A DNA stretch of 64,000 nucleotides from Zelonia costaricensis (Eukaryota > Euglenozoa > Kinetoplastea > Trypanosomatida > Trypanosomatidae). Positions 24,184-44,981 of the stretch are shown piece after piece. The stretch covers positions 1 through 64,000 of the forward strand of contig JASAOO010003463.1 in NCBI GenBank assembly GCA_030849075.1. Reading direction: 5' to 3'. A program made the position numbers and the translations under genes. How positions within the stretch are numbered: the stretch's first letter is position 1; each line of letters starts with the position of its first letter. The notes beneath the pieces were generated by a model that ran no database searches, was not told the origin of the DNA, and saw only the letters and a list, made by a program, of their open reading frames with translations.

Positions 24184-27100
24184 CTACGGCGACGGCGCCC
24201 TCGACAGCGCGCTTGCACTCATCGAGGCTGCAGGCTGCTGCGACGACACGTCCGTCTCGGCCAGCTGCGCGCCAAGGTCGCTTTGCAGCGTACGCGCGGC
24301 GGAGGTGGCGGACTCGACCGTTATGCCGGAGAGAGAGCGCCGCCGCTCACCAAAGACGGCCGCGCTCGTTGCAGGCGAGGCGGCCCCACTCGTCCGCCGC
24401 GGCACGACGGAGGCCTCAAAGCGGTCCCGCAGCGGCGACATGGCCGCCACGTCTCTCGAGTCTTCTTCAAGCGTTGTCTGCACCTTCACCCGCCGCCGCC
24501 GCTGCAGTGTTGGGCGGAGGCTCGGCGAGAACGAGAACCCCCGTCGCGTCGGCTGGCGATGGCGCCCGTCGCGCAAAGCTGCCTTGAGCTGGTCGACTAC
24601 GACCTGCTGCTGCGCCAGCGCCTCGTAGAGGTCGTGCTTTTCCTTGTGCGCGAGCTCTGCAAGGTTGACCTTGCCCAGCCGCTCGAGAAGGTCTAGCACC
24701 TGCGTCGTCTCCTGCATAGCAGATGGGGTACTCACTGTGGAGGCGGCGGCGCTGCGAAGCGAGCTCGGGTACGCACGCGACGCGCTAGAGTACCAGCTGT
24801 CCTCGTCTTCCCCGCGTCGGTGGCGCCGGCGTAGCAGGTCCACTTCCGACGTCGCGACACCCTCGAGCAGGGAGGCGTAGTCGGAGCCGTACACCTCGGA
24901 CACGCTCAGCGTGAGTGCCGGCGTCGGCGGCGTCAGCGCCCCCGAGTCGCTCAAGCCGCGCGCAGGCGAGTCCTCGAACGCGGTCGCCGGCACCCGGTGA
25001 TGACGCCCGGCAGAGCGGGAGTAAGAGTCGGGTTGAACTGGCGACGGCGACATCACGCTGAGTTGCGGCGTGCAAGCCGGCGCACCGGCTGTGGGTGAAG
25101 CGAGGGAGGGAGCCTCGGTCACAACGTAAGGATGCGCCGGCGTCACTCCAACCTCCGAGAGATGCGAGGCGGGATCTAGGTGCGGCTCCCGAGGCGCCTC
25201 GCGCAATTCTGCGCCGGGCATCTCCTCTGCTTGCAAAGCTGTTTTTGATCCCCTCGGCGGAGAGGCCGAGCGCAGTGGTGCGTCACGCGGGACTCTCGGC
25301 GTCGGCCCTTCGTCGCCGCTCGCGGCCATCAGGGAGGCCTCGTCGTCTTCCACCGCGATGTCGGTGACACTCAGGCTGGGTGAAGAGGCGCCTTCGGCGT
25401 CGCCCTCGTCGCAGGGGATGGGGCCTCGTGCGCTCGATGATGGCGCCTCCGGGTCGCCGCGTGCCGAGTCGTCAGCCCTCGCCACGCCGTTCGGTCGCGC
25501 CGTTGACATGGGGGTGGCGCTGGACCATGAAGAGGGAGAAGAAGAGGCGCCGTCGCTCTTGTGCAGCGGTGCGGCGGTGTCGTCGCCGGCGTCGTCGTCC
25601 GTGTCGCCTTGCTGACTTTCCTGCAAGACGGAGCGGCGCACGACGGGCACGCTGCGGGAGCCCGGGGCGGGCGTGCCCGACTCGAACACCTGTGGCGATG
25701 CCGTGACAAACACGCCAGGTGCGTCCGCCACCACTTTCCTCGCAGTTGCCCGGTCCTCTCTCGTCTCCACAGTGGAGGCAGCACACGGCGTGTGCACCTC
25801 GTCGCCGCGGTCATCGTTAGGTGGCAACTCCGGCACCGTGCTGGCGGCCCACGCCGCCACCGCGAGCCCAGTGGTGACGCGGCGCACAACAAAGTCGACG
25901 CTCTGCGTGAGAGACGAGGAGGCGGCTGAGTGGGAAGAGGGCGGCGCTGCATTCACGGTAATCAGGTCTTCGTCTGCGAAGCGGTCAGGAGCGGCGTTGG
26001 CAACGCTCGAGTCATCAGAATTCCCAAGAGGGGTTCTGGCCGCCTCTTGTACCGTCACAGCAACGACGCGTGCGTCAGATTTGTGCTGCTGGGGGTGCGC
26101 TGCGGGCGCGCGCGCCGAGAACCCCGGCAACGCTGCCTCCACTTCCCGGGCGTGCAGGAGGGTCTCCGCAGCGGCGGGTGCGCGAGGGCTAGTCGGCAGC
26201 GCTTCGGACCGCTTCACTTGAGCGTCCCCGTCGTCATCGCGTCGCACGCGGCTCCCCGTTCCCGTCCGTGGCGCGTCTTCTTCAGCCATTGCGTACGTGT
26301 CCACCGCGTGGGTGCCCAACTCCACCCCGCGCCGTGGTGCGGCCGTGCGCGCCGCGGCAGGCGTCTCCTGTCGTGGCGCCGTCCTCTGTACGGCGGGTGA
26401 GTCGATGGACGCCGTGGCGGCTGTGGCAGAGCCGGAGAAGGCGGCGCTGGTACGTGTGCTGCTGCGTCCTCGCACCATCGGCCGCAGCACCGACGTCGCT
26501 GTCTCCACGGTCGTGTCTCGTGCTGGGCGGTCGCCGCGGTGCTCGCCCCGCTGCGTTCCTGCAAGTCGAATGGAAAACTCCGTCAACGACCCTGCATCCT
26601 CGCTGTCCGCGTCCGAGCGCAAAACAGCCTTCTGCGTCCTACTTGTGACGTCCGTGCCGGTGCCAAGGGGCCCGAGCACCTCCTGGGTGGCGAAACTTCT
26701 TTCTACGGCAGCCCTGTCCGCTCCTACGTCATCAGTAGCTCCTTCAGGGCCTTTGCCTCCCGACTGCTGACCTCTGCGGGCGGAATCCGTGCGCACCTGC
26801 TCGGCTTCACCCTCGGGGACCGGGTAGGACTGGCGCACGAAGGCTGACGGAGGGAAGGCCCCGCTCACGGAGCGACGCAGCAGCTGCTGTGCACCCGAGA
26901 AACTTGAGCTCGACGGCAGCGTGGGCACAGTTCCGGCTGCATCGGCTCGATCCGCTGCACTGCGCATGCGCGCTGACAAGCCGTCAGCGCTCTGCATCAC
27001 CTCCCACCAGGCCGTGTCCGCGCTCACCCGCACGTCCTCCTCCGCGTTGGTCGCGAGCACCGCAAACAGCTGCTGCACGAACCGAAAGAGGTGCAGCGGG

Positions 27101-28509
27101 AGAGCCGTGCGGCCGTGGGCGACCACCTCTCCCGGACTCAGCAGCAGCGGCACGCCAAGCTGACGCGCCGCCGCCGCCGCCGCGGTCCAGTAGCAGAGCG
27201 ACTGATGCCGCTGCAGCCCGACCCGCGCCTCGGCGACATCTGCTGCGTCACCTGTGCCAGCCTCAAAGTACGCGGCACCCTCCCGCAGCGCCGTCGCGAG
27301 CCCGTCCAGTGCCACGGTTTCCGGGTAGTAGAAGAGGAGCGCTACGCAGACGCACTCGCCACTCTGCACCAGCCGAAACAAGTCGCGGTCGGCCGACTCC
27401 ATCGCGTGGGCGCAGAAGGGGCCGTTTTGCACGTAGGCCTGCAGCGGCGCGCACCTCCGCATTCGTGCTAGCACCGCGGCGCCGTCCTCCGAGAACCGGA
27501 TGCTGTCCATCACCGTCTGGAACCAATCGAGCAAGGCGCCCTCCACGCTGTTTGGTGGCGGCGCCGACGGGGACCGCTGCCGTGGTGGCGGCAAGGCGGC
27601 TTGCAACTGCGTCACGTGGGCCATGACCCCCTCGCAGGTGAGCAAGGTGGCGCAGTACTGCAGGAGCAGCGAGCGCGTCAGCAGCAAATGTGCGCCGAGA
27701 AAGAACGGCACGAGCTTGGCGAGGTGCAGCGCCAGTTGGCGGTGGCGACTGAACTGCTGCTGCTGCGCCGTGGCCGAAATCCCCGAATGCACGTCGTCCG
27801 CACCGGGGCCATCCGACTCGAGTGTCGTCGCCAGCTCCTCCTCAGCCAGCACGCCTTCCGAGAAGAGCCACCGCAGGAGCAGCAGCATGGCCTGCACGGC
27901 GCTGCCCATCACATCCACGTCCGCCAGCGCCGCCACGTCGTCGCTGGCAGGATCGATGGCGGCCAGCGGCTGCGCGTCGAGGCGGCGGTACGACGAGGAC
28001 GACGCCAGCGTGCCCGTGGCGCGGCGATCACCGGCAACGTCGTCACCGTCTTCGTCGTCGGTGTCAGCGCTGGGGAAACTGACGTTGAGGTCGGGGTGCG
28101 CCGCTCCTTTGCTAGCCGGCAGCGGCGACGATGAGGGCGATGGCGCACGCATGCGGGGCTTGTGCGACGCAGGTGCCGTCACCGCGCGTTCGAGAAAGGC
28201 GTGCATGGTAGGCGGACACCCGCCCAGCAGGTGGTCCGAGACGAGCAGGTACAGCACCGCCTCGCGGGAAAGGCGCAGCACGCCAAAGGGGAGATCGGCC
28301 AAGGTGCACCCGCCGTCAAAGGTGAGGCGGGTCATGATGGGGTTCATCGTAGCCGCAGACTGGATGAAGGCGGGGTACCGCTGCTCGATGGTGGGGTCGA
28401 GGAGGCTGGCGGCGTACCAGAGGAGCCAGCGCATGTTCACCGCGTACTCGAGGACGTAGAGGTCCACGTCGGCACCGCCATTGAGGGTGCTGCTCGATAT
28501 ACCCGCCAT
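24184..28509 (-). CDS. Large protein of unknown function, 1441 aa
   Basis: No family recognised. The first 520 or so residues look folded and mainly helical, starting with a hydrophobic region (about 17-37) and containing several Leu-rich helices such as FGVLRLSREAVLYLLVSD (75-92). Ser/Ala-rich loops interrupt it. The middle (about 525-1240) is low complexity, rich in Ser, Ala, Thr, Asp and Arg, and very probably disordered, with many potential phosphorylation sites. A coiled-coil-like helix follows (about 1255-1315; LDLLERLGKVNLAELAHKEK), then an Arg-rich tail with RRRR. The ATG at 28509 is the first in frame. The architecture, a folded head, long flexible spacer and terminal coiled coil, suits a cytoskeletal or membrane-tethered scaffold, but nothing in the sequence proves this. 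Confidence 0.9.
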   Translation of the reverse strand: MAGISSSTLNGGADVDLYVLEYAVNMRWLLWYAASLLDPTIEQRYPAFIQSAATMNPIMTRLTFDGGCTLADLPFGVLRLSREAVLYLLVSDHLLGGCPPTMHAFLERAVTAPASHKPRMRAPSPSSSPLPASKGAAHPDLNVSFPSADTDDEDGDDVAGDRRATGTLASSSSYRRLDAQPLAAIDPASDDVAALADVDVMGSAVQAMLLLLRWLFSEGVLAEEELATTLESDGPGADDVHSGISATAQQQQFSRHRQLALHLAKLVPFFLGAHLLLTRSLLLQYCATLLTCEGVMAHVTQLQAALPPPRQRSPSAPPPNSVEGALLDWFQTVMDSIRFSEDGAAVLARMRRCAPLQAYVQNGPFCAHAMESADRDLFRLVQSGECVCVALLFYYPETVALDGLATALREGAAYFEAGTGDAADVAEARVGLQRHQSLCYWTAAAAAARQLGVPLLLSPGEVVAHGRTALPLHLFRFVQQLFAVLATNAEEDVRVSADTAWWEVMQSADGLSARMRSAADRADAAGTVPTLPSSSSFSGAQQLLRRSVSGAFPPSAFVRQSYPVPEGEAEQVRTDSARRGQQSGGKGPEGATDDVGADRAAVERSFATQEVLGPLGTGTDVTSRTQKAVLRSDADSEDAGSLTEFSIRLAGTQRGEHRGDRPARDTTVETATSVLRPMVRGRSSTRTSAAFSGSATAATASIDSPAVQRTAPRQETPAAARTAAPRRGVELGTHAVDTYAMAEEDAPRTGTGSRVRRDDDGDAQVKRSEALPTSPRAPAAAETLLHAREVEAALPGFSARAPAAHPQQHKSDARVVAVTVQEAARTPLGNSDDSSVANAAPDRFADEDLITVNAAPPSSHSAASSSLTQSVDFVVRRVTTGLAVAAWAASTVPELPPNDDRGDEVHTPCAASTVETREDRATARKVVADAPGVFVTASPQVFESGTPAPGSRSVPVVRRSVLQESQQGDTDDDAGDDTAAPLHKSDGASSSPSSWSSATPMSTARPNGVARADDSARGDPEAPSSSARGPIPCDEGDAEGASSPSLSVTDIAVEDDEASLMAASGDEGPTPRVPRDAPLRSASPPRGSKTALQAEEMPGAELREAPREPHLDPASHLSEVGVTPAHPYVVTEAPSLASPTAGAPACTPQLSVMSPSPVQPDSYSRSAGRHHRVPATAFEDSPARGLSDSGALTPPTPALTLSVSEVYGSDYASLLEGVATSEVDLLRRRHRRGEDEDSWYSSASRAYPSSLRSAAASTVSTPSAMQETTQVLDLLERLGKVNLAELAHKEKHDLYEALAQQQVVVDQLKAALRDGRHRQPTRRGFSFSPSLRPTLQRRRRVKVQTTLEEDSRDVAAMSPLRDRFEASVVPRRTSGAASPATSAAVFGERRRSLSGITVESATSAARTLQSDLGAQLAETDVSSQQPAASMSASALSRAPSP

Positions 28510-29365: not shown

Positions 29366-32300
29366 TTACCGGGGGTGCAACGGGCGCACTTGCGATTGCT
29401 GGCTCGTGGCGTGGGAGGGGGAGGAGCTGCTGCGCGTTGTCGAGTACGAGTAGGAGTCGTACGACGTGTAGCTGGACGGGGTCACGTAGCTGCTGCTCTT
29501 CGTGTACCCCGTGCTGGTGGACGGCGTCGCCGACACGCTCGCGCTCGTCGAGGTCATCGTCACTGCGGACGTGGTCGCCGTCGTGGCAGACGGGCAGGCG
29601 TACCGCCGCGGCGGAGCGCCGCGTCTCGCGGGTTCTTTGGCAGCACTTGCACGATCACGGTTGGGATCGTAGTTGTCGAAAAGCCGCCGTCCCGCCGAAG
29701 ACGTGAGTGAGGACGGCGTCTGCGAGGTGACGCACGACGAGCCGGTCACCGAGCGCGAGGTTGTGGTGCCGTCCCCCCGGTACGGTGGTCGGTACCGTCG
29801 CAGCGGATCCTCTGCGCGAATGTCGCCGCTTACGCCGCCGCGGCTCGCGTGGAGCTCCGCTCTGAGTAGAACGCGGTCGCGCAGCTCGAGAAAACGCTGC
29901 TGCGACACGAGGCGCGTCATGGCAGCGTCGCTCGGCGTGCTCTGATTGTACATGTGGCGGGGCAGGGGCGGGTGGTGCCGCCGGTTTTTCTTGGGCTCCG
30001 GCGAGTGTGCGTAAATGTGCGTCTCCTCCGCCGCGGGTTTCGCGTCCTCGGCAGGGTGCGGTGCCTGAGGCTGCGCGGGTGGTGGTGTGGCCGGTGCGTT
30101 TGGAGGCGAAACGACTGCGTGAGCAGCGCCGCCGTCCTCTGTGTCGTGGTGGGCCGGGGTGCCATGCTCTTTCATCGATGGCTGCGCCTCACCTTCGTCA
30201 TCGCCGCAGACACGAACCGTTTCTTCGCGTGCGTCGCCCCCGACGCGACCTTCTGCGGCTGGAGGCTTCACATCCTCCCTCTGTTGCACTGCAGCGGGGC
30301 GCTCGTGCGCGGACTCTGCGGCGGACGCGGCCACGCTTTCCTCGTCCCCCACGTCAGCCTCACCTGTCGCCTCCGCGTGCACGTCGCTGGTGTGAAGGAG
30401 CGGCGCGGTAGGGTCGTAGTGCTGCATCACCTCCGCTTGCTGCCGCTCGTCTTCCTCGATGCGCTGCACGGCCCGCTGCACCTGCGCGTCCGCGTCGCTC
30501 TGCAGCCGATGCAGCTCCTCGTCCGTCAGGTGCGCTGCCAGCCGCCACTGCAGCTGCTCCATGTGCCGGTCCACCATGTCGTGCCGCAGCTGCGACTCCA
30601 CCACGTTCATCTCCGCGTGCAGCGCTGCCAGCTCCTCCGCACTGCGAGTGCGGGACTGCAGCGCCGCCCAGCGCAGCTCGCGCTCCTCCGCGTCACGCGC
30701 CTGCCGCGCCTGCTCGACGGCGAGGTGCGTCTCCCACGTCGCGGCGGACGCGTCGTACTTCGCCGCCACACGCGCCCGCTGCTGCTGCACCAGGGCCGCC
30801 TCGGTCGCCGCGGCAGCCTCCGCCGTCGTGCGCAGCGCCTCGAGGCGCTCCGTCGCACGCCTCTCCTCGTCGCGGCTCCGCTGCAGCAGCGAGAGCTCGC
30901 GCAGCTTCTCGGTGAGCACAACGGGGTCGTGGGCGAGGCTGACGCGATACACGAAGCTGGCGGAGAGCGTGGCCAGCGTGTCGTAGGCGGAGATGTCCGC
31001 CACGGTGCTGCGCGGCGCGAGGCGCCAGCTCTGATGTAGTCGGTAGCTCTCCTCCAGCACCCGCTGCATTGATGACGGTGCCGGCGCAGTCGAGTCCACT
31101 GGCGAGGGGAGCCGTCGAAGCACGGCACGCACCTCCTCCACACTCGCGGCTGCGAGGAGCTGTGAGCGTAGTCGGGTGCGGACGAGCGTGACCTGGAAGG
31201 CGAAGAGCCACCCCGGCGACGCGGCCAGGGCGTGGTCCATCACCTGCAGCCACTCCGCCCCCGTGAGCACCTCCGTAAAAAACGAAGTCAGCAGCTCCCA
31301 GCCCCAGACGGCGACGCCGGCGCCCATCGCGTCGAGGTGCTGGCACAGCTGCTCATCACCGCAGCGCAGCTGGTGCTCCAGTGCCATGAGAAGCGCCGCA
31401 GGGCCGTGCGGGTGGCACGAGAAGAAGTCCCTGCCCCAGTTCATGAAAAAGACGAGCACCAGCTCCACGACGGACTGCACCGCATCGCGGAACAGCATCG
31501 TGAGTGGGTAGACGAGGACCGGCAGGTACGAGGCGAGGGTGAAGACTGGAGAGGCCCAGCAGAGGCACGACAGCGCCGACTCCACGGCGGTGCGAGTCGA
31601 CGACGGCGGCAGCGGGAACGGCGCCATGAGCTGCGACACGGCGAGGTGGGTGGGCCGCCGTGCGAGCGCGGCGAACTGCGAGGCCGTGCGTGCCGGACTC
31701 GGGAGGGCGCACAGAAAGCGCCAGATTGCTGGCCGGTGGGCCTGCGGGAAAACTCCGTGCTTGATCAGGTGGGTGTGCAGCTGCGTCAGATTGTGCTGGC
31801 ATGAGGTCGGCGACAGCGTGTCACAGTACGTCGCGCTCGCTGACCACGAGCGCGGCAACGTTGTGGCATCCTCGCCGGAGCCCGTGCCTTGCAACCGTGC
31901 AGCAGCAACAGGCGCCGGAATCGGTGCTGCGGCTGCTGCACTTGGCCGCGGCGACCGTGTGTCCACCTCGCTCACATTCGCCCACGTCCTCGGGAAACCC
32001 TTTCTGGGCACCGCGGTGGCCGGGCGACACCCCGACAGCACCGCGAGGGCCGCATCCACGACGGGCAGGGGCGTCTCGACCACATGCGCGACTGGCGACG
32101 GGCTCGCTGGGGCCGCGCGTTGCGGACGAAGAAACGACTGCGCCAGCACGACGGCGGACGGCTCCGCCACAGCGCCGCCCGCCCCTGCGACGGAGCCCCG
32201 GCGCGGCTTCACAGGGCTGTGCCGTGCTGCGGTGTGCGCCGGTACTCGCCCGACTTCAGCCGCACTCGCCTCTGCCTCGGCGCGGCGTGCGGAGGGCAGG

Positions 32301-33634
32301 TGAAGAAGCGTGAGCAGGTGCTCACGCCACAGCACCCCGAACGTAGGGCCGGACGGCGTGAAGCTCCACTGCGAGCGGGGGGCGAAGCGCAACGCCGCGC
32401 TGGCGAGCGCCGGCGGGCGCACGGTAAAGACAAGGTGGAAAGTGCTCGGGAGCACAACGTGCACGACCCCACTGCTGAGAAGGCATGCGACGCAGTCCGA
32501 CTGCAGCGTGCTGACTTGTGTGACGGTGACGGCGCGCTGCCGTGAGTCTGACGGGGCGGTGTTGGTTGGCAACCGCACAACGCCGGCCCCACCAAGGGTG
32601 TGGGCCTCCACAAACGCCACCACCGGCCCCACCTGGCTACCGGCCGCGTCGGTGGTCACCGCGTCAGCTCCCACCGCGACGAGGGCGCCGCAGAGGGCGG
32701 AGCAGCGCACGCGCAGGACCGGCGGCACGGCAGCGCTGCACAGGAGGCGCGGTTCTACGTCACGAGCACGCGCTTCTGCTTCGTCGGAACTCGCACTCGT
32801 TCTCGCCCACAGCGCCAGCACGCCGTCCGTGGCCACCGTGAGGAGTGTCGCGTGGGGCAGCAGGTGCACGTTAACGAGACGCGTCGCCGAAACTCCTCCC
32901 GTGTTGTCCGTGTCGCCCCCGCCACGGCTGGGTCGGGCGGCCTCTTTTGCGAGGGCCGCTGGCGTAGGCCGCAGGCTGCTCGAGCAGGCGTAGCGCGGCA
33001 TCGAACCACCAGAGGCGGCGGCGCGGCTCTGCGGCGATGGCGCTGCGGCGTCGCCGTAGCCGCCGGCTCCCCCATCCCCGTGTCGACCCGTCTGCGAGGT
33101 CGGCGCAGATGCACCGCCCGGACCGGCGTCAGCGTCAGCGAGCGGCTCCCAGCAGGACACCGCGTCGCTGCTTACGGCGCAGAAGAGAGGCTCGGTAGAG
33201 GCGCCGGCGACAAGTCGCAGCAGCGGGCGGTGATGTGCCGTGGCCTGCACGTCCTGCAGCACCGTCCCGCGTTGCCAGTCCACAAAGACAAGTCGGCTGT
33301 CCCCGCAGCCGAACACCACGATGGGGCTTGTCAGGTAGCCGGGGCAGAAAACAGCGCACCGCAGCGCGTTGCCGGGGCCGAGGTCGGCCAGGAGAAACAG
33401 CTTGTCCTCCTGCAACGAGACGCCAAACGCCTTGCCACCCTGCGTTCCGAGCGCGAAGCACGACTCGTCCACCGGGTGGAACGCGACGGAGGTGACGGCG
33501 TCGTCAGCCTTGGTCGGGCTCGGGCCCAGGTGCACCGACAGGAACGCCCCGTTTGGGTGCAGCGGCACGGCGGCCGCCTCACCAGCCCCCCACAGCGGCG
33601 ACACAACCGTGTTGCTGGAGACCAGCACCGACAT
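29366..33634 (-). CDS. TBC1D31: TBC1D31 (WDR67) homologue, WD40 plus TBC domain, 1422 aa
   Basis: Three-part protein matching human TBC1D31. A degenerate WD40 region spans about residues 45-450 (VTSVAFHPVDESCFALGTQGG at 47-67). A Rab-GAP-type TBC domain spans about 615-830, with HRPAIWRFLCALP (633-645), YLPVLVYPLTMLF (703-715), MNWGRDFFSCHPHG (731-744) and TEVLTGAEWLQVMDHAL (787-803). These correspond in order to the vertebrate protein. A charged coiled coil follows (about 905-1070). The C-terminus is low complexity, ending Ser/Tyr/Thr-rich. The usual TBC catalytic Arg and Gln fingers are not evident, as expected for this subfamily, so GAP activity is doubtful. The vertebrate protein is a centriolar satellite component, so a basal-body or flagellar role is likely here. 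Start at the ATG at 33634. Confidence 0.93.
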   Translation of the reverse strand: MSVLVSSNTVVSPLWGAGEAAAVPLHPNGAFLSVHLGPSPTKADDAVTSVAFHPVDESCFALGTQGGKAFGVSLQEDKLFLLADLGPGNALRCAVFCPGYLTSPIVVFGCGDSRLVFVDWQRGTVLQDVQATAHHRPLLRLVAGASTEPLFCAVSSDAVSCWEPLADADAGPGGASAPTSQTGRHGDGGAGGYGDAAAPSPQSRAAASGGSMPRYACSSSLRPTPAALAKEAARPSRGGGDTDNTGGVSATRLVNVHLLPHATLLTVATDGVLALWARTSASSDEAEARARDVEPRLLCSAAVPPVLRVRCSALCGALVAVGADAVTTDAAGSQVGPVVAFVEAHTLGGAGVVRLPTNTAPSDSRQRAVTVTQVSTLQSDCVACLLSSGVVHVVLPSTFHLVFTVRPPALASAALRFAPRSQWSFTPSGPTFGVLWREHLLTLLHLPSARRAEAEASAAEVGRVPAHTAARHSPVKPRRGSVAGAGGAVAEPSAVVLAQSFLRPQRAAPASPSPVAHVVETPLPVVDAALAVLSGCRPATAVPRKGFPRTWANVSEVDTRSPRPSAAAAAPIPAPVAAARLQGTGSGEDATTLPRSWSASATYCDTLSPTSCQHNLTQLHTHLIKHGVFPQAHRPAIWRFLCALPSPARTASQFAALARRPTHLAVSQLMAPFPLPPSSTRTAVESALSCLCWASPVFTLASYLPVLVYPLTMLFRDAVQSVVELVLVFFMNWGRDFFSCHPHGPAALLMALEHQLRCGDEQLCQHLDAMGAGVAVWGWELLTSFFTEVLTGAEWLQVMDHALAASPGWLFAFQVTLVRTRLRSQLLAAASVEEVRAVLRRLPSPVDSTAPAPSSMQRVLEESYRLHQSWRLAPRSTVADISAYDTLATLSASFVYRVSLAHDPVVLTEKLRELSLLQRSRDEERRATERLEALRTTAEAAAATEAALVQQQRARVAAKYDASAATWETHLAVEQARQARDAEERELRWAALQSRTRSAEELAALHAEMNVVESQLRHDMVDRHMEQLQWRLAAHLTDEELHRLQSDADAQVQRAVQRIEEDERQQAEVMQHYDPTAPLLHTSDVHAEATGEADVGDEESVAASAAESAHERPAAVQQREDVKPPAAEGRVGGDAREETVRVCGDDEGEAQPSMKEHGTPAHHDTEDGGAAHAVVSPPNAPATPPPAQPQAPHPAEDAKPAAEETHIYAHSPEPKKNRRHHPPLPRHMYNQSTPSDAAMTRLVSQQRFLELRDRVLLRAELHASRGGVSGDIRAEDPLRRYRPPYRGDGTTTSRSVTGSSCVTSQTPSSLTSSAGRRLFDNYDPNRDRASAAKEPARRGAPPRRYACPSATTATTSAVTMTSTSASVSATPSTSTGYTKSSSYVTPSSYTSYDSYSYSTTRSSSSPSHATSQQSQVRPLHPR

Positions 33635-34703: not shown

Positions 34704-37700
34704 TCAGAGGCTCGTTGACCAGACGTCGCGTAGATACCGCCCATCTTTGCTCATCTGGTCCAGATACGCTGCCGCACCCGCTTCGGTCAGCGACAGATGC
34801 TGCTGAATGAGCTCGCGCAGGGTGTTGTGCACCTCCTTCGCCATGTTGTCCGCGTCGCCGCAGACGAAAACGTGAGCGTTGCGCTGCAGAACGAGGTCCA
34901 TGAGCGCCACGCCGCACTCCATCATCTTGTCCTGCACGTAGCAGCCGCCGTACCAGAAGCCGCCATCGTTCACGTCGCGCGAGAAGGCCACCGTGAGGGA
35001 GTGCACGACCCCGGTGTCCTCCCACGTGGCCAGCTCATCGCGGTAGAGGTAATCCTCGCGCCGGCGGCGACACCCAAAGAAGACGTCGATGCTGCCGCAC
35101 AGGGCGTGACGGTGGTGCGTCGCCTCCTCGTACGGGCACCCGCACAGCTTCCCGGTCGCCGGCGCGGGGCTGCACTGCCGCTGCCGCTCCTCCAGCCACG
35201 CCTGGCGCTCCTGCAGAAAGGCCCGAAACGGGGCGATGCCGGTGCCGGGGCCGATGAGGATCATGGGCACGAGCGGGTCACGCGGCATGCGGAACTCCGC
35301 GGCACGGCGAATCACGAACGGAATGACGACGCGCCGCTTTGCCACAACGACCGTGTTGGCGTGCACCGGCTGGCGCACCAGCGCGTGCGCCGTCTTCTTG
35401 TCCCCGCGCGACGGCGGGTCGGCGGCGGTGGCGGAGTGTGGGAGCCCCGCCGCCCACAGGCACTGCTCGTACATCCACCCGGTGCACAGACCGTGCTCGA
35501 CAACCTTGAAGCAGATGGACAGCGTCGTCGGGTCGGCGCGGTGCGAGCTGCAGATCGAGTACTGTCGAGGCTGCACCAACGCCAGGTTCTCGACTATGTG
35601 CCGGAACGGCGGCAGCGCGTCCGCCACCGCGGCAACCGCCTCGAGCACCTCGCGCAGGTCACGCGGCGTGCGGTCGGCCAGCAGAGCCGTGTACATCTCC
35701 TGCACAGTCACCCGCGCCGCCGCGCTGCTGCAGTGCCGCTCCAGAAGCTGGAAGAGCGCCTTGTGTCCAGCACTGACGCGCAGCTCCACGTAGCGCAGCA
35801 GCACCATCCCACAGCTCACCGGAAAGTCGACGGCCGCGTACAGGGGCGAGTTCGGGAACGCCGAGGCATCCGCGCCGGCAAGGGAGAGGGGATGAAACGG
35901 CTCGTGGTGCCGCACGCGCAGCACCCGCAGCAGCGCCTCCACCGCCGCCGCGTTGTTCGACGGCAGCACGGCGATTGTCTGCCCCGGCGACCACTGCGTG
36001 CCCTGCGCGACAGAGAGGTTGAGCTGAAGCACTGGGTGCCGCACCGTCGGACACGTCAGCAGCGTCCACGACTGCACGACGCCGTCGGCCCGGTCGCCGG
36101 CGTTGGCGGCGCTATAGGCGACGCGGTTCACCATGGACGCCTCGGTGCGACCGTCAAGCAGCGTCGAGGCGTTGTCGGCGCTGCGGCTCCCCACCTCGGC
36201 CGATACGGAGCTCTGCGCATCCTCGCCGCCCTCCTCCTCAGCGTCCTCGCTGTCCTCGCCGAGGCCCTCGTCCTCCGTCGTCGCCCCTGCCGCGTCATGT
36301 GCGACACCCCCAAACGACTCTTGTAGCTGAGTCGAACGGCTGCGGGCGGCGGACCGTTGCGAGCGCGGCGCCTTCTTCTCGCCGTTCGGACCCTGTGCGA
36401 CGGCGCCTGCTACCCCGCTTGCGGCGGTGGCGGCCGTCGCCGCCGCTCCGGTACGGTGCAGGCGGCGCAGCAGTGCGTCAGCCCCGCTGCTGGAGCGCTC
36501 GGCCGTGCTGCTCGCCGTCTTCGGCGCCGTTGCATTGCCGGCGCCGCTGCTGCGTGGAAGGCGTTGGTGGTGGCCTCCGTCCGTGCCGGGGCTGGACTGG
36601 ACGGCGCTGCCGGCGGTGGGGCTGTCGCAGAGGGAGACGAGCGTCCCGAGAAGGCCGGCGCTCCACTTCTCCACCGCCCGCTCGAGGCGGAACGAGTCCA
36701 CCACCTCCCCGCGAGCGTGCACCCGGGTGCCACCCAGCTCCTCGACACGCCGGTCGAGCTGCCGCGCCGTGTAGCACTCCGCGGCGTTGCTGTCCGAGAC
36801 GGCGAGCACCGTGTACGCGACGGCCGCAAACATGTCCAGCGGCGCCGTGCGCTGTCGCACCACCCGCGAGAAGGCGGTGCCGTTGAGCGGGTACTCGGCA
36901 TTCTCCTCGCCATCCCCAACAACAAAGACGATGACGTCGAACTCGCTGCGCCAGTTGCGCTTCACCAGCGCGTTCATGGTGCACGCTGTCACGACGAGCG
37001 TCGTGTTCTCGCGGATGAGCTGGGAAAGGTACTCGACGAGCTGCGACACGACGCTGGTCTGCGTGCAGCAGTAGGCCAGCACGGCGCGTCGCTGTCGCGC
37101 CGGCGCCGCAGGGGCGGCGACCGCGACGGAAACAGCGGACAAGTTTTCGATCACTGCGGCGCCGCACCTCCCCGGGCGCGCGAGGCCCGTGACAGGGTGT
37201 GACACCGCTGCCGACTCGAGTGCACCGGGTCTCGCTGCGGCGAGCTCGGCGACGACGCGCTGCTGCGCCGTGGCGCGGGCCCCGAGCGCGGCAAACATAA
37301 TCGTGCGCCACGCCTCCACCGGCGCGGCTATCGCCTGCGCGGCGTCCACCGTGCCCACATCGCAGAGCCGCGTGCCGCCGAGCTCGGCCATGCGGCGGTC
37401 CAGTCGCACCGCAGCCCGGCAGAAGGAGAGCGGGCCCTGCGCCGTCGCCGCCCCGTTGCCGAGCCCGAGGACGGCGAACGCCGTGCCACCAAGCAGCATG
37501 CTGGGCTGCTCCTTCGCGAGCAGGTAGCGCGCAAAGCTGCGCGCGTTTCGCGGGAAGCCGCCTGGCGCGGTCGGGATCGTGCTGCACACGAGCACGACCG
37601 TCGCTGTCGACAGAAAGTTCATCTTCTGAAAGTACTTCATCGCGGCGACACGGGAGAAGAAGCCGCGGCCGAGTGCCTCGCGGTGCAGGTCGCGCGCAAT

Positions 37701-40673
37701 CGACTCGGTGATGCCAGTCGAGCTGCCAAACAGGAACACAACGCAGCGGTGCGGGTCGGCAGCCGTGGCCTCGTCCGCCCCGGCGGCGGCGCTCATGGCA
37801 GCAGGCAGTGCAGCAGCCTTGGCAGCATCTGTGAGGAGGCTTGCCGCGCCGCCCTCTGGTACGTTCACGGACCCTGCAGACGTCACCGTGGCGCTGGCGG
37901 AAGTGCCGTTCTGGGCCGCTGGCAGCTGTGCCGGTGGTGGCGAAGGCATCAGGGCCATGGAGGACAAGACGCAGTCCACCCACGGCATCGCGAGCGAGTG
38001 CAGCTGCGACATCGAGGCCATAATGACCACCGGAAACACCCGATTGGCCTGCAGCCGGGACAGCAGCTTTTCCCACAAAAAGGCTGGATGCACGACGTTC
38101 GCGGCCGTGGCGCCGAGACCCAGCACGGCAAAGCGCACAAACGACAGCGCGTCTGGTCGGTGCGACGGGTTGGTCAGGAACTTCTTGAAGCGGCGGCCCC
38201 CGTTCGACTGCCCATCCGGCCCTGCCTCGCAGAAGAGGACAAGGTTGGGGTAGGCGTGGTAGTCCACCGCCTGGAAGTCGGCAAAGGCGTGCATGGCGGC
38301 GGGGAAGCCCTTCTCCCGGGCACTCTGCATCGCGTGCGCCGCCATCGTCTTGGACATGCCGGCCGAGGCGTACAAAAAGGCAATCGACGTGTGCTGCGTG
38401 TTCTCCTTGTGCAGCGGGATCGTGTCCCACGGGAAGAGGGCGCCGGCGAAGCTGGCCACCCCCGCGCTGCTGTCTGCGTCGACAGAACCCGTCGGCAGCA
38501 CTGGCGCCCCGCCCACCGGCGATGACAAGGGCAGCTGTCCATTCGCCAGCGGGTCGCTGTGAGCGGGCAAGGGAAAGGGAAAAGGGCTGCTGCTCCCATT
38601 CGCCATGCGCCCAAGCACTACCGCCGCAGTGGCACCTTCCACGGCGGCTACTCGGCCAGCCGCCTCTGTTGCTGCTGCAGCTGCGGCGGCTGTGGTGGTG
38701 GTGGTGGGTGAGCCGCTTGAGGCGGCGGCCAGTAGCGGGCCCCGCTGTGCCACGATGTTGGGCGAGGCCACGTCGAGGTAGGCGGCGCTCTTCATGGGGT
38801 GCACAACGGCGCTCCAGAGGTTGACCTCCCACGACTCCAGGATCGGGACGAGGCTGCTGCAGTCCGCGTCGGCGAGCCCGGTGCAGTGGATCTTCGTCGC
38901 TTTCATCTCGAGCAGCAACGTCTCCAGCTCGAGCGCACATGTGTTGAAGCGGTCACTCTGCGAGGTGCTGTCGATGCCGAGGATGGCGAAACTGACGCCG
39001 TCCACCTGCCTGCCCTGTGCCTGCAGCGAGCGCAACACCTTCAGCACGCGCGCCATCGACCTCGTCAGCGCCCCAGACACAACAAAGATGAAGGTGGCGC
39101 GCCGCGGGAAGCCGGTTTGCCGGAAGTTGCTCACCTCACAGATGGAGCTGCGCAGGTGATGCTGGCGGGCACCGCTGAAGATGTCCATGGCCACCTGTTT
39201 GACGAACGCCGAGCCGTCAGAGTACAGAAACACGACCGGCGTCAGCAGGTCATCCAGCACCTGGTGCGTCTTGTTCACCGGACGCCCATCCGCGGTACTG
39301 GGCACCGTGCCGTGGGCTGAGCTTTCGGTGCGGTCGTGCTCGGCATCCGCGCTATGGCGCAGGAACCGTCGCCGCGTGTGCGTCGACACGGTCCGGCTCG
39401 TGCCGCCGCCGTCGTCGCTCTCCGCGGCGCCGTGACGCCCGTCCGGCAGCGCTTTCGCCGCCGCGCACGCTCGAAAAGCTGCCCCAACGCGGTTGTCGAA
39501 GAAGTGCTCCATCGTGCCGTGGATGCGGGCCGTGTCGGCGGTGACGCCTGGCAGGCTGTCCAGCACACCCTCAATCCACGAAAAGGTGTCCGCATCCTGG
39601 ACTGCGATGGAGGGCAGCTCGCCGGTACCCTGGCGCCGACAGAGAAACTCGAGCTTGCACGCTGCGGCAATCGCCTTGAGGCTGGCATCCAGCGCGGCGG
39701 CGGCGCGTGCGGCGGCGTCGTCCTTGGGACAGATAAAGAGAGAGTTGAAGAAACGGATGGCCGGGTCCGCTAGCCAGCGCTGCAGCCCCTCCGCCCCTGC
39801 TGGCGGGGTGCCGGGGGCGTTGCCGCACACCCACGCGCTGAACGGCCCGACCGGGGGCAGCAGCTGCACCGCCGCGGCGCACTGCTCGCACAGCGTGTCG
39901 GCATCGCACTCGGCACCGAGGACGAAGAGCACGACCTTCGGCGGCCGTGTGAGGCTGGTGCTTGGGTTGAAATATTGGATGGGGTACAGGTCCGCCTTGC
40001 CACCGAGCTCGATGATGCGTTCGTAGAGGAAGAGCGCCGTCACCGCGCAGAGATGCACCGCGTTGGAGTAGAGAATGGCGGCCTCTTGTGCCACAGACAT
40101 GTCGACGCGCGTTTCGCCCGTACTGTACGTCTCGCGCCCCACAGCAGGCGCCAGCTCGTCAGCGCTCCACCGCAGCGCGGCCCAGAGTCCGTCCATCCAC
40201 GGGTCAACGACGAGGTGTAGCCCGACCCCGTCGTCCGCCTCCCCACGTGGGTAGCAGCGGACGGCACCCAGGTCGTTCAGTCGGTTGTCCATGAAGATGC
40301 CTGGCGCGCAGAAGTTGTTGTAGTTCGTGTCCCCGAGCGCCAAAAGGCAGTAGCGAACCTTGTGCAGTGTACCGGTGGTGTTGCGCAGCCAGCGCCGAAA
40401 CCGCGACGCGTTCTGCGGCGGCTCCCCCTCGCCCATCGTGCTGCACACAATGACAAAGCAAAGCGACTTTGCAGCATCGTCGGCCAGCTGAGCGTCCAGC
40501 AGCTTCTTCGTGACCACCTGATTGAGCGTCATGCACTCCGCTTCCGGGAAGCCGTGCGTCGTGGTCGCGTCGTGGTGCAGGCGTTTCGCGATGCTCTCGG
40601 CGTTGCCCGTCTCGGAGCCGTAGACGAAGTACAGCCGCTCCGCCGCCTCCCCATCGCACGCCTCGCCACTCAT
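34704..40673 (-). CDS. Giant diflavin-reductase-like protein with about six flavodoxin-like domains, 1989 aa
   Basis: The ends match NADPH-cytochrome P450 reductase. Residues 14-170 are a flavodoxin domain with FMN phosphate loop GSETGNAES (19-27), CSTMGEGEPP (77-86) and LALGDTNYNNF (111-121). The last 450 residues are an FAD/NADPH module: RQYSICSS (1703-1710) and GLCTGW (1728-1733) for FAD, GPGTGIAPFRAFLQER (1808-1823) and FFGCRRRREDYLYRDEL (1865-1881) for NADPH, and VFVCGDADNM near the end with Trp1985 close to the terminus. Between them lie five more flavodoxin-like units at about 246-375, 479-620, 763-905, 977-1130 and 1197-1345. Number 5 keeps GSSTGITES (983-991); the others have degenerate loops. 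A disordered acidic linker spans 1350-1520. Normal reductases are about 600-700 residues with one flavodoxin domain. No membrane anchor is visible. Electron acceptor unknown. Start at ATG 40673. Confidence 0.93.
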   Translation of the reverse strand: MSGEACDGEAAERLYFVYGSETGNAESIAKRLHHDATTTHGFPEAECMTLNQVVTKKLLDAQLADDAAKSLCFVIVCSTMGEGEPPQNASRFRRWLRNTTGTLHKVRYCLLALGDTNYNNFCAPGIFMDNRLNDLGAVRCYPRGEADDGVGLHLVVDPWMDGLWAALRWSADELAPAVGRETYSTGETRVDMSVAQEAAILYSNAVHLCAVTALFLYERIIELGGKADLYPIQYFNPSTSLTRPPKVVLFVLGAECDADTLCEQCAAAVQLLPPVGPFSAWVCGNAPGTPPAGAEGLQRWLADPAIRFFNSLFICPKDDAAARAAAALDASLKAIAAACKLEFLCRRQGTGELPSIAVQDADTFSWIEGVLDSLPGVTADTARIHGTMEHFFDNRVGAAFRACAAAKALPDGRHGAAESDDGGGTSRTVSTHTRRRFLRHSADAEHDRTESSAHGTVPSTADGRPVNKTHQVLDDLLTPVVFLYSDGSAFVKQVAMDIFSGARQHHLRSSICEVSNFRQTGFPRRATFIFVVSGALTRSMARVLKVLRSLQAQGRQVDGVSFAILGIDSTSQSDRFNTCALELETLLLEMKATKIHCTGLADADCSSLVPILESWEVNLWSAVVHPMKSAAYLDVASPNIVAQRGPLLAAASSGSPTTTTTAAAAAAATEAAGRVAAVEGATAAVVLGRMANGSSSPFPFPLPAHSDPLANGQLPLSSPVGGAPVLPTGSVDADSSAGVASFAGALFPWDTIPLHKENTQHTSIAFLYASAGMSKTMAAHAMQSAREKGFPAAMHAFADFQAVDYHAYPNLVLFCEAGPDGQSNGGRRFKKFLTNPSHRPDALSFVRFAVLGLGATAANVVHPAFLWEKLLSRLQANRVFPVVIMASMSQLHSLAMPWVDCVLSSMALMPSPPPAQLPAAQNGTSASATVTSAGSVNVPEGGAASLLTDAAKAAALPAAMSAAAGADEATAADPHRCVVFLFGSSTGITESIARDLHREALGRGFFSRVAAMKYFQKMNFLSTATVVLVCSTIPTAPGGFPRNARSFARYLLAKEQPSMLLGGTAFAVLGLGNGAATAQGPLSFCRAAVRLDRRMAELGGTRLCDVGTVDAAQAIAAPVEAWRTIMFAALGARATAQQRVVAELAAARPGALESAAVSHPVTGLARPGRCGAAVIENLSAVSVAVAAPAAPARQRRAVLAYCCTQTSVVSQLVEYLSQLIRENTTLVVTACTMNALVKRNWRSEFDVIVFVVGDGEENAEYPLNGTAFSRVVRQRTAPLDMFAAVAYTVLAVSDSNAAECYTARQLDRRVEELGGTRVHARGEVVDSFRLERAVEKWSAGLLGTLVSLCDSPTAGSAVQSSPGTDGGHHQRLPRSSGAGNATAPKTASSTAERSSSGADALLRRLHRTGAAATAATAASGVAGAVAQGPNGEKKAPRSQRSAARSRSTQLQESFGGVAHDAAGATTEDEGLGEDSEDAEEEGGEDAQSSVSAEVGSRSADNASTLLDGRTEASMVNRVAYSAANAGDRADGVVQSWTLLTCPTVRHPVLQLNLSVAQGTQWSPGQTIAVLPSNNAAAVEALLRVLRVRHHEPFHPLSLAGADASAFPNSPLYAAVDFPVSCGMVLLRYVELRVSAGHKALFQLLERHCSSAAARVTVQEMYTALLADRTPRDLREVLEAVAAVADALPPFRHIVENLALVQPRQYSICSSHRADPTTLSICFKVVEHGLCTGWMYEQCLWAAGLPHSATAADPPSRGDKKTAHALVRQPVHANTVVVAKRRVVIPFVIRRAAEFRMPRDPLVPMILIGPGTGIAPFRAFLQERQAWLEERQRQCSPAPATGKLCGCPYEEATHHRHALCGSIDVFFGCRRRREDYLYRDELATWEDTGVVHSLTVAFSRDVNDGGFWYGGCYVQDKMMECGVALMDLVLQRNAHVFVCGDADNMAKEVHNTLRELIQQHLSLTEAGAAAYLDQMSKDGRYLRDVWSTSL

Positions 40674-42770: not shown

Positions 42771-44927
42771 TTAATCGTCGTCGTCGTGGTTCACCATGTC
42801 ACCAAAGAAGCCGCCAACGCGGCGGCGCCGCTTCTCGTACGTGAAATTGATCTTCTTGCGGCGCTCCTCCTTGAGCCAACGCGCCGCCGCGGCACGCTCG
42901 CGCTTCTTCTGCCGATCCGTGCGGTACGCCTCCATCGAGTCGACGGCGGGCACAGCAACCGGCTCGCTGGGCGACATCGCAGGCGCCTCCGCCGCGTCCC
43001 CCGACTGCTTCTTCTTTTTCTTCTTTGCTGGCGGCTCCAGTGCGCCGGCGTCGCCGTTCGCCGAAGGGGCAACCTGTGACACCTGCTTGGACCGCTTCTT
43101 CTTGGGCAGCGCTACCGACGCCGCGTCCCCGTCGGAAGCTGACGTGGCACTGCTGCCCACGTCGAGCTTCCGCGCCTTTGCAGCGGGCTTACCGTCGGCG
43201 CTTTTCCCTGCCTTTTGTTTGGCGGCCAGCTTCGTTGCCTTGGCGGCCCGCCGCGCGTCCTCGCCGTCGCTGTCGCTCCCGCTGCTGCCCTCCGCCTGCG
43301 AGGCGGTCCGCTGGGTGACGCCGAGTTGCGCAAAACGCAGCCGCAGTGCCTCGCGGCGAGCCAGCGAGGCCTGCGCCGCCGCCTCCACCGCAGTCGCGTC
43401 GCCGGCGCTAGAACGTGAGCTCGCGTCGTCGTCCTCGTCGTCGCTAGAGGACGACGCAGCGCTTGCGGACTTCGCGTCGAGCTCGCCGTCCGCGCCCCGG
43501 CCCTCCATCATGCGCAGCTCCCGCTCGTCTTCCTCATCCCGCTCACGGTCCAGGTCGCGCAGGGTGCGCAGGTGCCGCTGCTCGGCGCGACCGCGCAGCT
43601 GGTCCAGCTCCGCCTCGTCGTTGAGGAAGGCGATGTCGACAAAGTCGATGATGTTGTCCGCACCGCTGACGGCGAGCAGATTGGCGTCGTACGAGACACG
43701 CATGCGGCTTATCGCCTCCTGCCCGCGGGCGCGGCGCGCAACGTAGTTGCCCTGTTGCTGGTGACCGCCGCTGCTGCTCTGGTGGCCCAGCACGCTGGAG
43801 TGGGAGTAGGTGTAGTCGCGCGCACTCAGCTGGCAGAGATTCCGGCGAACCGGGTACATCTGCAGCACCCGCACCAGCCCATCGCACGCGCCGGTGAGGA
43901 TGAGGTTGTGGTTGAAGGCGGTGTTTTCGCCGTGGAAAGAGATGATTGCCTCACACTCGGCCGGGTGGCGGTCCATGACGTCGTACGGCCGCGCCCACGA
44001 GCCGTACTTCCAGATGGGCAGGCCGCCGTGCGGGGTGCCACACACGATGCTCGGGATGAAGGTGGCGTTGCTGATGCCGCTGCTGTTGATGAAGGCGAAG
44101 CAGTTCAGCTCGTCCTTGCGCCGGACGCTGAAGTCGCGCACCTTGCCAGCACGCATGTCGTACGCCCCGAGGCACGTGTCGCCGCTGCTGGACACCAGCT
44201 CCTGCGCGTCGGTGAAGTAGCAGAGCTGCGAGACGTAGTCGCCGTGCTCGTGGTAGACGTGCACCGGCTTGCGCTCCCGCATGTCCCACACGGCGATGAG
44301 GCCGTCGTCATCGCCGGTCGCGATTACGTTCTCGTCGCACACGTTGAGGCACGAGATGCCGTACTTGTGCGGGTTGACAGGCACCACGATGCCCTCGCCC
44401 GCGGCCGACTTCTTCAGCGTCATCCGCTTCGATCCCTTCACGGCCGGGTCGTTCTTTTTATTCTGCGCGTTGAGCTTCTTCTTGGCCGCCGTGCGGGCCC
44501 GCACGTCGTCGGACGGGATGTGGATGACAAGCCGCAACGAGACGCAGTCCATGACGGAGATGCTGCGGTCCCCACTCGCCGTGACGAGGTAGGTGCCGTC
44601 GTCGGTGAACTCCATCGACGACACACCGCCGGCGGGGTGCATGAGCATGTTCTGGTGGTGGTAGTTCATCACCACCTCGTCCTCGCTGTACTGCCCCTTG
44701 AAGATCCACGACGAGAAGTCGTTCTGCAGCGGAATCTTCACCATTTCGTCGACGCTCTTGCGCTCGTAAATCTCAACCTCGCCGGTGATGAGGCCGGCCG
44801 CCATGATGGGCAGCTGCGGGTGGAAGCCGATGTCCAGCACAGGCGCCGACGCCACCACCGCTGCCGGCACCGTCGCCTCGTTTGTGTCCCCCATCAACAC
44901 ATCCTCCTTGAGGTCGCTGAGCTCCAT
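42771..44927 (-). CDS. WDR55: WDR55 (Jip5) WD40 ribosome-biogenesis protein, 718 aa
   Basis: WD40 protein of the WDR55/Jip5 family, nucleolar and needed for rRNA processing in other eukaryotes. Repeats run from about residue 28 to 440: APVLDIGFHPQLPIMAAGLITGEVEIY at 28-54, TASGDRSISVMD at 116-127, ATGDDDGLIAVWDMRERK at 203-220, and SSSGDTCLGAYDMR (246-259), the order typical for the family. An unusual Lys-rich loop (about 145-180) interrupts blade 2. The C-terminal third (445-718) is charged and disordered, with acidic Ser/Asp tracts, KKKRSK (609-614) and a KKKKKK run (635-641), and ends in GGFFGDM. Basic clusters fit nucleolar targeting. The ATG at 44927 is used; the 14 codons above it have only a non-conserved in-frame Met. 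Family call firm. Confidence 0.93.
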   Translation of the reverse strand: MELSDLKEDVLMGDTNEATVPAAVVASAPVLDIGFHPQLPIMAAGLITGEVEIYERKSVDEMVKIPLQNDFSSWIFKGQYSEDEVVMNYHHQNMLMHPAGGVSSMEFTDDGTYLVTASGDRSISVMDCVSLRLVIHIPSDDVRARTAAKKKLNAQNKKNDPAVKGSKRMTLKKSAAGEGIVVPVNPHKYGISCLNVCDENVIATGDDDGLIAVWDMRERKPVHVYHEHGDYVSQLCYFTDAQELVSSSGDTCLGAYDMRAGKVRDFSVRRKDELNCFAFINSSGISNATFIPSIVCGTPHGGLPIWKYGSWARPYDVMDRHPAECEAIISFHGENTAFNHNLILTGACDGLVRVLQMYPVRRNLCQLSARDYTYSHSSVLGHQSSSGGHQQQGNYVARRARGQEAISRMRVSYDANLLAVSGADNIIDFVDIAFLNDEAELDQLRGRAEQRHLRTLRDLDRERDEEDERELRMMEGRGADGELDAKSASAASSSSDDEDDDASSRSSAGDATAVEAAAQASLARREALRLRFAQLGVTQRTASQAEGSSGSDSDGEDARRAAKATKLAAKQKAGKSADGKPAAKARKLDVGSSATSASDGDAASVALPKKKRSKQVSQVAPSANGDAGALEPPAKKKKKKQSGDAAEAPAMSPSEPVAVPAVDSMEAYRTDRQKKRERAAAARWLKEERRKKINFTYEKRRRRVGGFFGDMVNHDDDD

Positions 44928-44981
44928 TGCGCGGCGTCGAAACAGAAGAGAACAGCGAAGATGCACCACCTCTGACGTTGC

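What the first reader, a model, noticed from the sequence alone, without database searches (positions are those of the whole stretch)
34704..40673. Reductase with about six flavodoxin-like domains feeding one FAD/NADPH module
The sequence shows a complete N-terminal flavodoxin, five further flavodoxin-like units (about 246-375, 479-620, 763-905, 977-1130, 1197-1345) and a C-terminal reductase module with FAD and NADPH motifs. Known diflavin reductases (CPR, NOS, methionine synthase reductase, Ndor1) have one flavodoxin domain. Unit 5 retains a phosphate loop with Ser-Ser-Thr-Gly, unit 6 a TQTS variant, and others are worn. The array may be an electron wire with one or two active FMN sites, or mostly scaffold. 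If real it is an unusual redox machine in a trypanosomatid.
Basis: partly seen in the sequence, partly recalled or inferred. Interest (0 to 1): 0.85.

Follow-up and report, generated by a model that had tools for sequence, protein, structure and literature searches.

The report
Methionine synthase reductase with six flavodoxin folds
This trypanosomatid gene most likely encodes the enzyme that re-activates vitamin B12-dependent methionine synthase, but it carries six flavodoxin-type domains where the textbook enzyme has one; only the first still looks able to bind its FMN cofactor, and the other five are conserved worn copies strung out like beads.

Summary
A 1,989-codon ORF on the minus strand (40673..34704) encodes six flavodoxin folds and one FAD/NADPH module. 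Five units are found by a profile built without kinetoplastid sequences; unit 2 is shown by structure prediction. The reductase module groups with methionine synthase reductases (MTRR), apart from the genome's own CPR, CPR-like and Ndor1 genes, and the genome holds a full B12-dependent methionine synthase. So this is the MTRR by descent, in an unusual architecture. It is not a six-FMN wire: only unit 1 keeps all FMN loops. Yet the worn units are about as conserved as the working parts, between variable linkers, so they are not spacer. Ten of 17 kinetoplastid records have all six; in seven Leishmania records units 4-6 were lost in three combinations, units 1-3 never. Other protists (diatoms, labyrinthulids and others) have MTRRs with two or more intact FMN domains, up to six in one metagenome fragment. 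Ten searches of an open-access library listed no paper that I could recognise as describing this. Best reading: one FMN shuttle on a chain of cofactor-less flavodoxin folds acting as tether or docking scaffold.

The parts
34704..40673 (-). whole ORF, 1,989 aa, MTRR-like reductase with six flavodoxin folds
   Evidence: one full-length locus in the assembly
40158..40646 (-). unit 1 (residues 10-172), flavodoxin with complete FMN loops SETGNA / STMGEGEPP / LGDTNYNNFC / ADDGVGL
39468..40091 (-). unit 2 (residues 195-402), flavodoxin fold without recognisable FMN loops, with an insert
   Evidence: present in 17 of 17 kinetoplastid records
38754..39248 (-). unit 3 (residues 476-640), flavodoxin fold, FMN loops lost
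37944..38402 (-). unit 4 (residues 758-910), flavodoxin fold, FMN loops lost
37269..37760 (-). unit 5 (residues 972-1135), flavodoxin fold, keeps a P-loop (GSSTGIT, about 37707-37727) but not the other FMN loops
36624..37100 (-). unit 6 (residues 1192-1350), flavodoxin fold, FMN loops lost
36087..36623 (-). long variable linker between unit 6 and the FAD module (residues 1351-1529)
   Evidence: mean pairwise identity 0.28 among nine six-unit orthologues
34707..36086 (-). FAD/NADPH reductase module (residues 1530-1989) with RQYSICSS, GLCTGW, GPGTGIAPF, VFVCGDADNMA and terminal DVW motifs

Best explanation
The gene is the methionine synthase reductase of this leishmaniine trypanosomatid, in an enlarged form. 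Inferred working: NADPH reduces the FAD of the C-terminal module; the single working FMN domain, unit 1 at the far N-terminus, takes electrons one at a time from the FAD and carries them to the cob(II)alamin of methionine synthase (MetH) for reductive re-activation. Units 2-6 are flavodoxin folds that have lost FMN. They hang on disordered linkers between the shuttle and the FAD module and act as a tether and probably a docking arm that sets the reach of the shuttle or helps hold MetH. Shown here by computation: ORF, folds, family, intact reductase motifs, one complete FMN site, conservation of the worn units, MetH in the genome. Inferred: electron path, MetH as acceptor, tether or docking role.
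For: Family: in the profile search, after 16 kinetoplastid records and eight multi-flavodoxin protist records, the next hits are fish MTRRs at about 365 to 299 bits, above P450-BM3-type enzymes at 220 to 210 (best 120 of 173 hits listed). In a tree of 46 reductase modules, kinetoplastid, protist and fish MTRR modules form one group (SH-aLRT 96, quick method) apart from the genome's own CPR, CPR-like C743 and Ndor1 (a long branch), BM3-type and CysJ-type. Partner: one MetH locus with five Pfam domains. Co-loss in print: Endotrypanum/Porcisia lack both methionine synthase and its reductase (section 3.10 of PMC8004069). One FMN site: loop table and conservation test, loops 0.92 vs rest 0.65 in u1 (random segments reach it in 0.5% of 2,000 draws), not raised in u3-u6. 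Worn units kept: mean identity among nine six-unit orthologues u1 0.71, u2 0.57, u3 0.72, u4 0.70, u5 0.69, u6 0.58, FAD/NADPH 0.62; five of six linkers 0.16-0.28. Beads on a string. Units 1, 2, 3 and the reductase are in 17 of 17 kinetoplastid records.
Against: I know of no measured activity, flavin content or MetH binding for any of these kinetoplastid proteins; the name rests on similarity. The tether or docking role is inference. Unit 5 keeps a P-loop, and in the outgroup record P0027 also a Tyr in the third loop and the ADD loop, so a second FMN site is not excluded. Seven Leishmania records lack some of units 4-6, so these are dispensable at least there. The usual arrangement (FMN domain next to the FAD module) is absent: unit 1 ends about 1,360 residues before the FAD module. 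PMC8085122 (passage) states that methionine synthase reductase is conserved independently of B12 use in fungi, so presence alone does not prove the role. The low pTM (0.32) of the units 3-6 model says nothing about how the units sit together.
Confidence: 0.7

Rival explanations
1. Electron wire or reservoir: two or more units of this protein bind FMN and pass electrons along the chain.
For: Unit 5 keeps SSTG; in P0027 unit 5 has SVTGSA, a Tyr in loop 3 and ADDCKG. Related protist MTRRs carry two or more intact FMN domains.
Against: In the window protein units 3, 4 and 6 have lost the FMN loops and unit 5 keeps only the phosphate loop; a cruder motif test gives unit 1 all three motifs and units 3-6 none, although it does not count unit 5's SSTGI. 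Their loops are no more conserved than the rest, and long low-confidence linkers would not hold flavins in a fixed chain.
Confidence: 0.08
2. Neutral relic: the extra units are leftovers of an old tandem expansion, kept by chance and now being deleted.
For: Leishmania records have lost units in different combinations (u5-u6; u4-u5; u4-u6); with the clean profile u3 and u4 of L. tarentolae score near chance (E 0.059 and 2.9), though a profile trained on the family still finds them; in four Leishmania records u3/u4 are less conserved than u1 (0.74/0.72 vs 0.87).
Against: In six six-unit records outside the Leishmania group u3, u4 and u5 (0.85, 0.80, 0.80) are at least as conserved as u1 (0.78) and the FAD/NADPH module (0.72); the units keep the fold in prediction; units 3, 4, 5 and 6 each form one group including the distant P0027; units 1-3 are present in 17 of 17 records.
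Confidence: 0.15
3. A reductase of MTRR descent that now serves another acceptor, with the worn units as partner-binding modules.
For: No biochemical evidence for any acceptor; very different architecture.
Against: MetH and methylmalonyl-CoA mutase are in the same genome, this is the one MTRR-group reductase among four FAD_binding_1 loci found, and MetH and MTRR are reported missing together in Endotrypanum/Porcisia.
Confidence: 0.1

Closest known systems
Vertebrate methionine synthase reductase (MTRR; e.g. P0036, Solea senegalensis, isoform X1)
   Same: Flavodoxin_1 - FAD_binding_1 - NAD_binding_1; FMN loops STTGDGEPP / LGDTNYANFC / ADDGVGL close to those of unit 1; reductase modules in one group
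   Different: One flavodoxin domain and 776 aa against six and 1,989 aa; FMN domain near the FAD module against about 1,360 residues away
Database orthologues in Novymonas, Leptomonas and Leishmania, several named 'methionine synthase reductase, mitochondrial precursor-like' (P0002-P0015)
   Same: Same protein, 52-68% identity for P0002-P0015; an L. infantum gene of that name, LinJ.36.4950 (taken by its name to be the same gene), appears in two expression studies (passages of PMC6794121 and PMC4784933)
   Different: Seven Leishmania records have three or four units; the repeated domains are not mentioned in the passages seen; the first strand starts at about residue 12, leaving no room for a usual mitochondrial presequence (inference)
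Protist tandem-flavodoxin MTRRs (Nitzschia, Thalassiosira, Chaetoceros with two; Hondaea and Mucochytrium with three; P0028 four; fragment P0132 six)
   Same: Same family (P0132 by similarity of its flavodoxin domains only) and the same idea of a repeated N-terminal flavodoxin
   Different: FMN motifs intact in both domains of 93 of 103 listed two-domain proteins and in all domains of P0133, P0134 and P0132; some duplications are their own, as copies pair within a protein (P0029, P0049, two of three in P0030)
NADPH-cytochrome P450 reductase and Ndor1
   Same: Same diflavin reductase domains and motifs
   Different: Separate genes in this genome (C587 and C743; C580), outside the MTRR group; the names CPR and Ndor1 for these loci are my reading of their sequence

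Membership tests
Methionine synthase reductase (MTRR) | Flavodoxin, FAD-binding and NADP-binding domains in that order on one chain | tested here: met
   Pfam PF00258, PF00667, PF00175
Methionine synthase reductase (MTRR) | Reductase module groups with MTRR, not with CPR, Ndor1, BM3 or CysJ | tested here: met
   tree of 46 modules, SH-aLRT 96, quick search; profile scores
Methionine synthase reductase (MTRR) | At least one flavodoxin domain with complete FMN loops | tested here: met
   unit 1
Methionine synthase reductase (MTRR) | B12-dependent methionine synthase in the same genome | tested here: met
   MetH with five Pfam domains at C561
Methionine synthase reductase (MTRR) | Typical, not defining: exactly one flavodoxin domain, next to the FAD module | tested here: not met
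   six flavodoxin folds; hence 'new variant', not ordinary member
Methionine synthase reductase (MTRR) | NADPH-dependent re-activation of MetH | not testable with these tools
   needs enzyme assay
Cytochrome P450 reductase | Groups with CPR; N-terminal membrane anchor | tested here: not met
   falls in the MTRR group apart from own CPR; N-terminus has about a dozen residues before the first strand
Multi-FMN reductase (as in protist tandem MTRRs) | Two or more units with complete FMN loops | tested here: not met
   1 of 5 sequence-detected units complete in P0001, unit 2 without recognisable loops; 2 of 2, 3 of 3, 4 of 4 and 6 of 6 in P0029, P0030, P0028, P0132

The most novel reading that the evidence does not exclude
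MTRRs of protists repeatedly turned into multi-FMN machines: several separate expansions gave enzymes with two, three, four or even six complete FMN carriers per FAD, a kind of diflavin reductase ('electron reservoir' or multi-armed shuttle) that seems undescribed. In kinetoplastids such an array was later converted: one carrier kept its flavin and five became conserved flavodoxin-fold docking or tether modules for MetH, and Leishmania is now trimming them.
Probability: 0.35. Interest if true: 0.8.

Novelty: new variant of a known kind. Interest (0 to 1): 0.62.

Why it matters
How diflavin reductases move one FMN domain between donor and acceptor is a long-standing question. A natural series from one to several flavodoxin domains on the same reductase, some arrays fully loaded and others emptied of flavin, lets one ask directly whether extra carriers store electrons, extend reach or hold the partner. 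The conserved FMN-less copies look like redox carriers kept as folds without their cofactor, and the step-wise losses across Leishmania give a ready comparative experiment in B12-dependent methionine synthesis.

Tried and rejected
Chance or pseudo-ORF: rejected; 15 orthologues, P0002-P0015 at 52-68% and P0016 at 41% identity. Disordered spacer: rejected for the units, true for five of the six linkers. Unit 2 as a non-flavodoxin domain: left open by sequence, answered by its own model. CPR, Ndor1 or sulfite reductase identity: rejected by tree and profile scores; NCBIfam's best model is cysJ, below its cut-off, as it is for a fish MTRR run beside it. Mitochondrial enzyme, as the inherited name says: no room for a usual presequence, inference only. 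Structure search with the four-unit model: the list is filled by unit 5 (model residues 502-842), so units 3, 4 and 6 rest on sequence profiles and modelled secondary structure, not on a fold match. Direct profile comparison of units 3 and 4 with unit 1 is weak (hhalign about 52-62% and 93-95%) and of unit 2 with unit 1 nil (2-4%); all but unit 2 match the clean flavodoxin profile at 99% or more, and the FAD/NADPH module, as control, at 0.3%. MMACHC search of the genome: nothing, but no control rang either, so uninformative. Tandem DNA repeats in the window: none at score 80. Single-unit trees are short and deep: which unit begot which is not resolved, apart from a hint of u3 with u4 (support 91/89). 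Frequency of tandem MTRRs: not estimated; the census query was itself made mostly of multi-flavodoxin proteins (10 of 11) and the best 120 of 1,567 hits were listed. In the motif count the control rows P0036-P0122, printed as 'fish', include several that are not; 82 of 87 had one domain with all three motifs. The motif test is three regular expressions and is rough. The paper hits (15 of 112 listed, e.g. PMC10913485) and most were seen as listings only.

Full report

WHICH UNITS CAN BIND FMN. I aligned the units with rat CPR and read off the FMN loops (the CPR residue numbers are recalled). Unit 1 has SETGNA, STMGEGEPP, LGDTNYNNFC and ADDGVGL, close to the loops of fish MTRR. Unit 5 keeps only the phosphate loop; units 3, 4 and 6 have lost them. 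In the outgroup record P0027 unit 5 is better preserved. Among nine six-unit orthologues the three FMN loops of unit 1 have identity 0.92 against 0.65 for the rest of the unit (random segments reach this in 0.5% of 2,000 draws); in units 3, 4, 5 and 6 the loops show 0.63, 0.67, 0.63 and 0.52, not above the rest (0.74, 0.70, 0.70, 0.58). The reductase module has its FAD, NADPH and catalytic motifs. So the sequence predicts one FMN and one FAD.

THE WORN UNITS ARE KEPT. Mean pairwise identity among the nine is 0.71, 0.57, 0.72, 0.70, 0.69 and 0.58 for units 1-6 and 0.62 for the reductase; five of the six linkers lie at 0.16-0.28, the short linker between units 1 and 2 at 0.53. In six six-unit records outside the Leishmania group (P0001-P0006) units 3, 4 and 5 (0.85, 0.80, 0.80) are at least as conserved as unit 1 (0.78) and the reductase (0.72). 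In four Leishmania records (P0009-P0012) the order is reversed: unit 1 0.87, reductase 0.81, unit 3 0.74, unit 4 0.72. In L. tarentolae units 3 and 4 barely score with the clean profile, though a profile trained on the family still finds them.

ORTHOLOGUES AND LOSSES. I records kinetoplastid: P0001-P0016 and P0027; P0004, P0005, P0008, P0016 and P0027 bear no species name and are placed by the trees or by identity. Ten have all six units (P0001-P0008, P0016, P0027; unit 6 of P0016 is weak). P0009-P0012 (L. mexicana, infantum, major, tarentolae) lack units 5-6; P0013 (L. martiniquensis) lacks 4-5 and keeps 6; P0014 and P0015 (Leishmania sp. Namibia, L. enriettii) lack 4-6. Units 1-3 and the reductase are in 17 of 17. 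P0007, in the Leishmania group of the tree but with its species name cut in the listing, has six. The unit tree puts units 1, 3, 4, 5 and 6 of five kinetoplastid records each in one group (support 100/100, 100/97, 100/99, 98/99, 93/81), so the array is older than the split from P0027 (unit 2 was not in that tree).

WHAT FAMILY. A profile search of the family meets fish methionine synthase reductases at about 365 to 299 bits, above P450-BM3-type enzymes at 220 to 210 (120 of 173 hits listed). In a tree of 46 reductase modules the kinetoplastid, protist and fish MTRR modules form one group (SH-aLRT 96, quick search) to the exclusion of this genome's own CPR (C587), CPR-like gene (C743) and Ndor1 (C580, long branch), BM3-type and CysJ-type. 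The fifth flavodoxin locus (C233) looks by its sequence like TYW1 (family recalled). The genome holds one B12-dependent methionine synthase locus with homocysteine methyltransferase, pterin-binding, two B12-binding and activation domains and a methylmalonyl-CoA mutase. In print, Endotrypanum and Porcisia lack methionine synthase, its reductase and two methylmalonyl-CoA enzymes (section 3.10 of PMC8004069 read). An L. infantum gene named methionine synthase reductase, LinJ.36.4950, which I take by its name to be this orthologue, appears in two expression studies (passages only, PMC6794121, PMC4784933). Against a tight link: a fungal survey says the reductase is kept independently of B12 use (passage of PMC8085122).

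TANDEM FMN DOMAINS ELSEWHERE. Related proteins in other protists also repeat the flavodoxin domain, with intact loops: P0028 four, P0030 three, P0029, P0031, P0034, P0049 and P0123 two each; P0116 and P0119 have two of which one is worn. A last search with these gave 106 further listed proteins: 103 with two domains (93 with both scored intact, 10 with one), two with three of three (Hondaea fermentalgiana, Mucochytrium quahogii; labyrinthulids as I recall) and one, P0132, with six of six. That is from the best 120 of 1,567 hits and from a query in which 10 of 11 proteins were multi-domain, so no frequency can be drawn. P0132 is a metagenome protein with near-identical repeats; Pfam finds no FAD domain in it, only its end looks by eye like the start of one, and an assembly error is possible. 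Named diatoms among the two-domain proteins are Nitzschia, Thalassiosira and Chaetoceros. 'EG_transcript' P0229, probably Euglena (inference from its name), has two, the first cut at its start, and groups with P0029 (100/100); these two, P0028, P0034, P0185 and the kinetoplastids form one group (100/100). Copies within P0029, P0049 and two of three in P0030 pair with each other, so expansion happened more than once.

MECHANISM. From knowledge of diflavin reductases (abstract and passages of PMC3509625): NADPH to FAD to FMN to acceptor, the FMN domain moving between donor and acceptor, which use overlapping faces. Here the one FMN domain sits at the far end of a chain of flavin-free flavodoxin folds and flexible linkers. 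The simplest reading is a long tether that lets the shuttle reach MetH and come back, with folds that may dock MetH or the reductase. Units 1-3 are the invariant core. Steps shown: anatomy, conservation, family, partner gene. Steps inferred: electron path, acceptor, docking.

PRINT. Ten full-text searches of the open library listed no paper that I could recognise, from titles, abstracts and the passages opened, as describing reductases with several flavodoxin domains. Some lists were cut (one search showed 15 of 112), most subscription papers are not in the library, and supplementary files were not read. A survey of B12 genes in plants and algae scored MTRR by its three Pfam domains; the passages seen do not mention repeats (PMC11439496).

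VERDICT. A real and odd architecture: a methionine synthase reductase by descent, with one FMN domain that looks complete and five conserved worn ones. New variant of a known kind.

Noticed in passing
P0132 (metagenome protein, 1,839 aa): Six near-identical flavodoxin domains, all with complete FMN motifs, and an end that looks by eye like the beginning of a reductase; true multi-FMN enzyme or repeat mis-assembly.
   Followed up: partly
P0028, P0034, P0185 (protist MTRRs): They carry repeated segments that look PDZ-like (sub-threshold Pfam PDZ hit in P0034, PDZ listed for P0185, by eye in P0028), and a worn flavodoxin piece at the N-terminus.
   Followed up: no
P0012 (L. tarentolae): Units 3 and 4 are close to unrecognisable to a general flavodoxin profile while unit 1 and the reductase are well kept: erosion in progress.
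   Followed up: partly
window 1-64000, minus strand: All ten ORFs of 700 aa or more are on the minus strand (one, 36478-38940, is another frame inside this gene), as expected of a trypanosomatid polycistron. Of nine other ORFs scanned, six have no Pfam hit at E 0.001, among them 24184-28509, 29366-33634 and 52607-58081.
   Followed up: no
window 4495-6027 and 42771-44969, minus strand: Two WD40-repeat proteins.
   Followed up: no
database names such as those of P0002, P0003, P0006 and P0009-P0012: 'Mitochondrial precursor-like' seems an inherited name; the flavodoxin fold begins about 12 residues from the start, leaving no usual presequence.
   Followed up: partly
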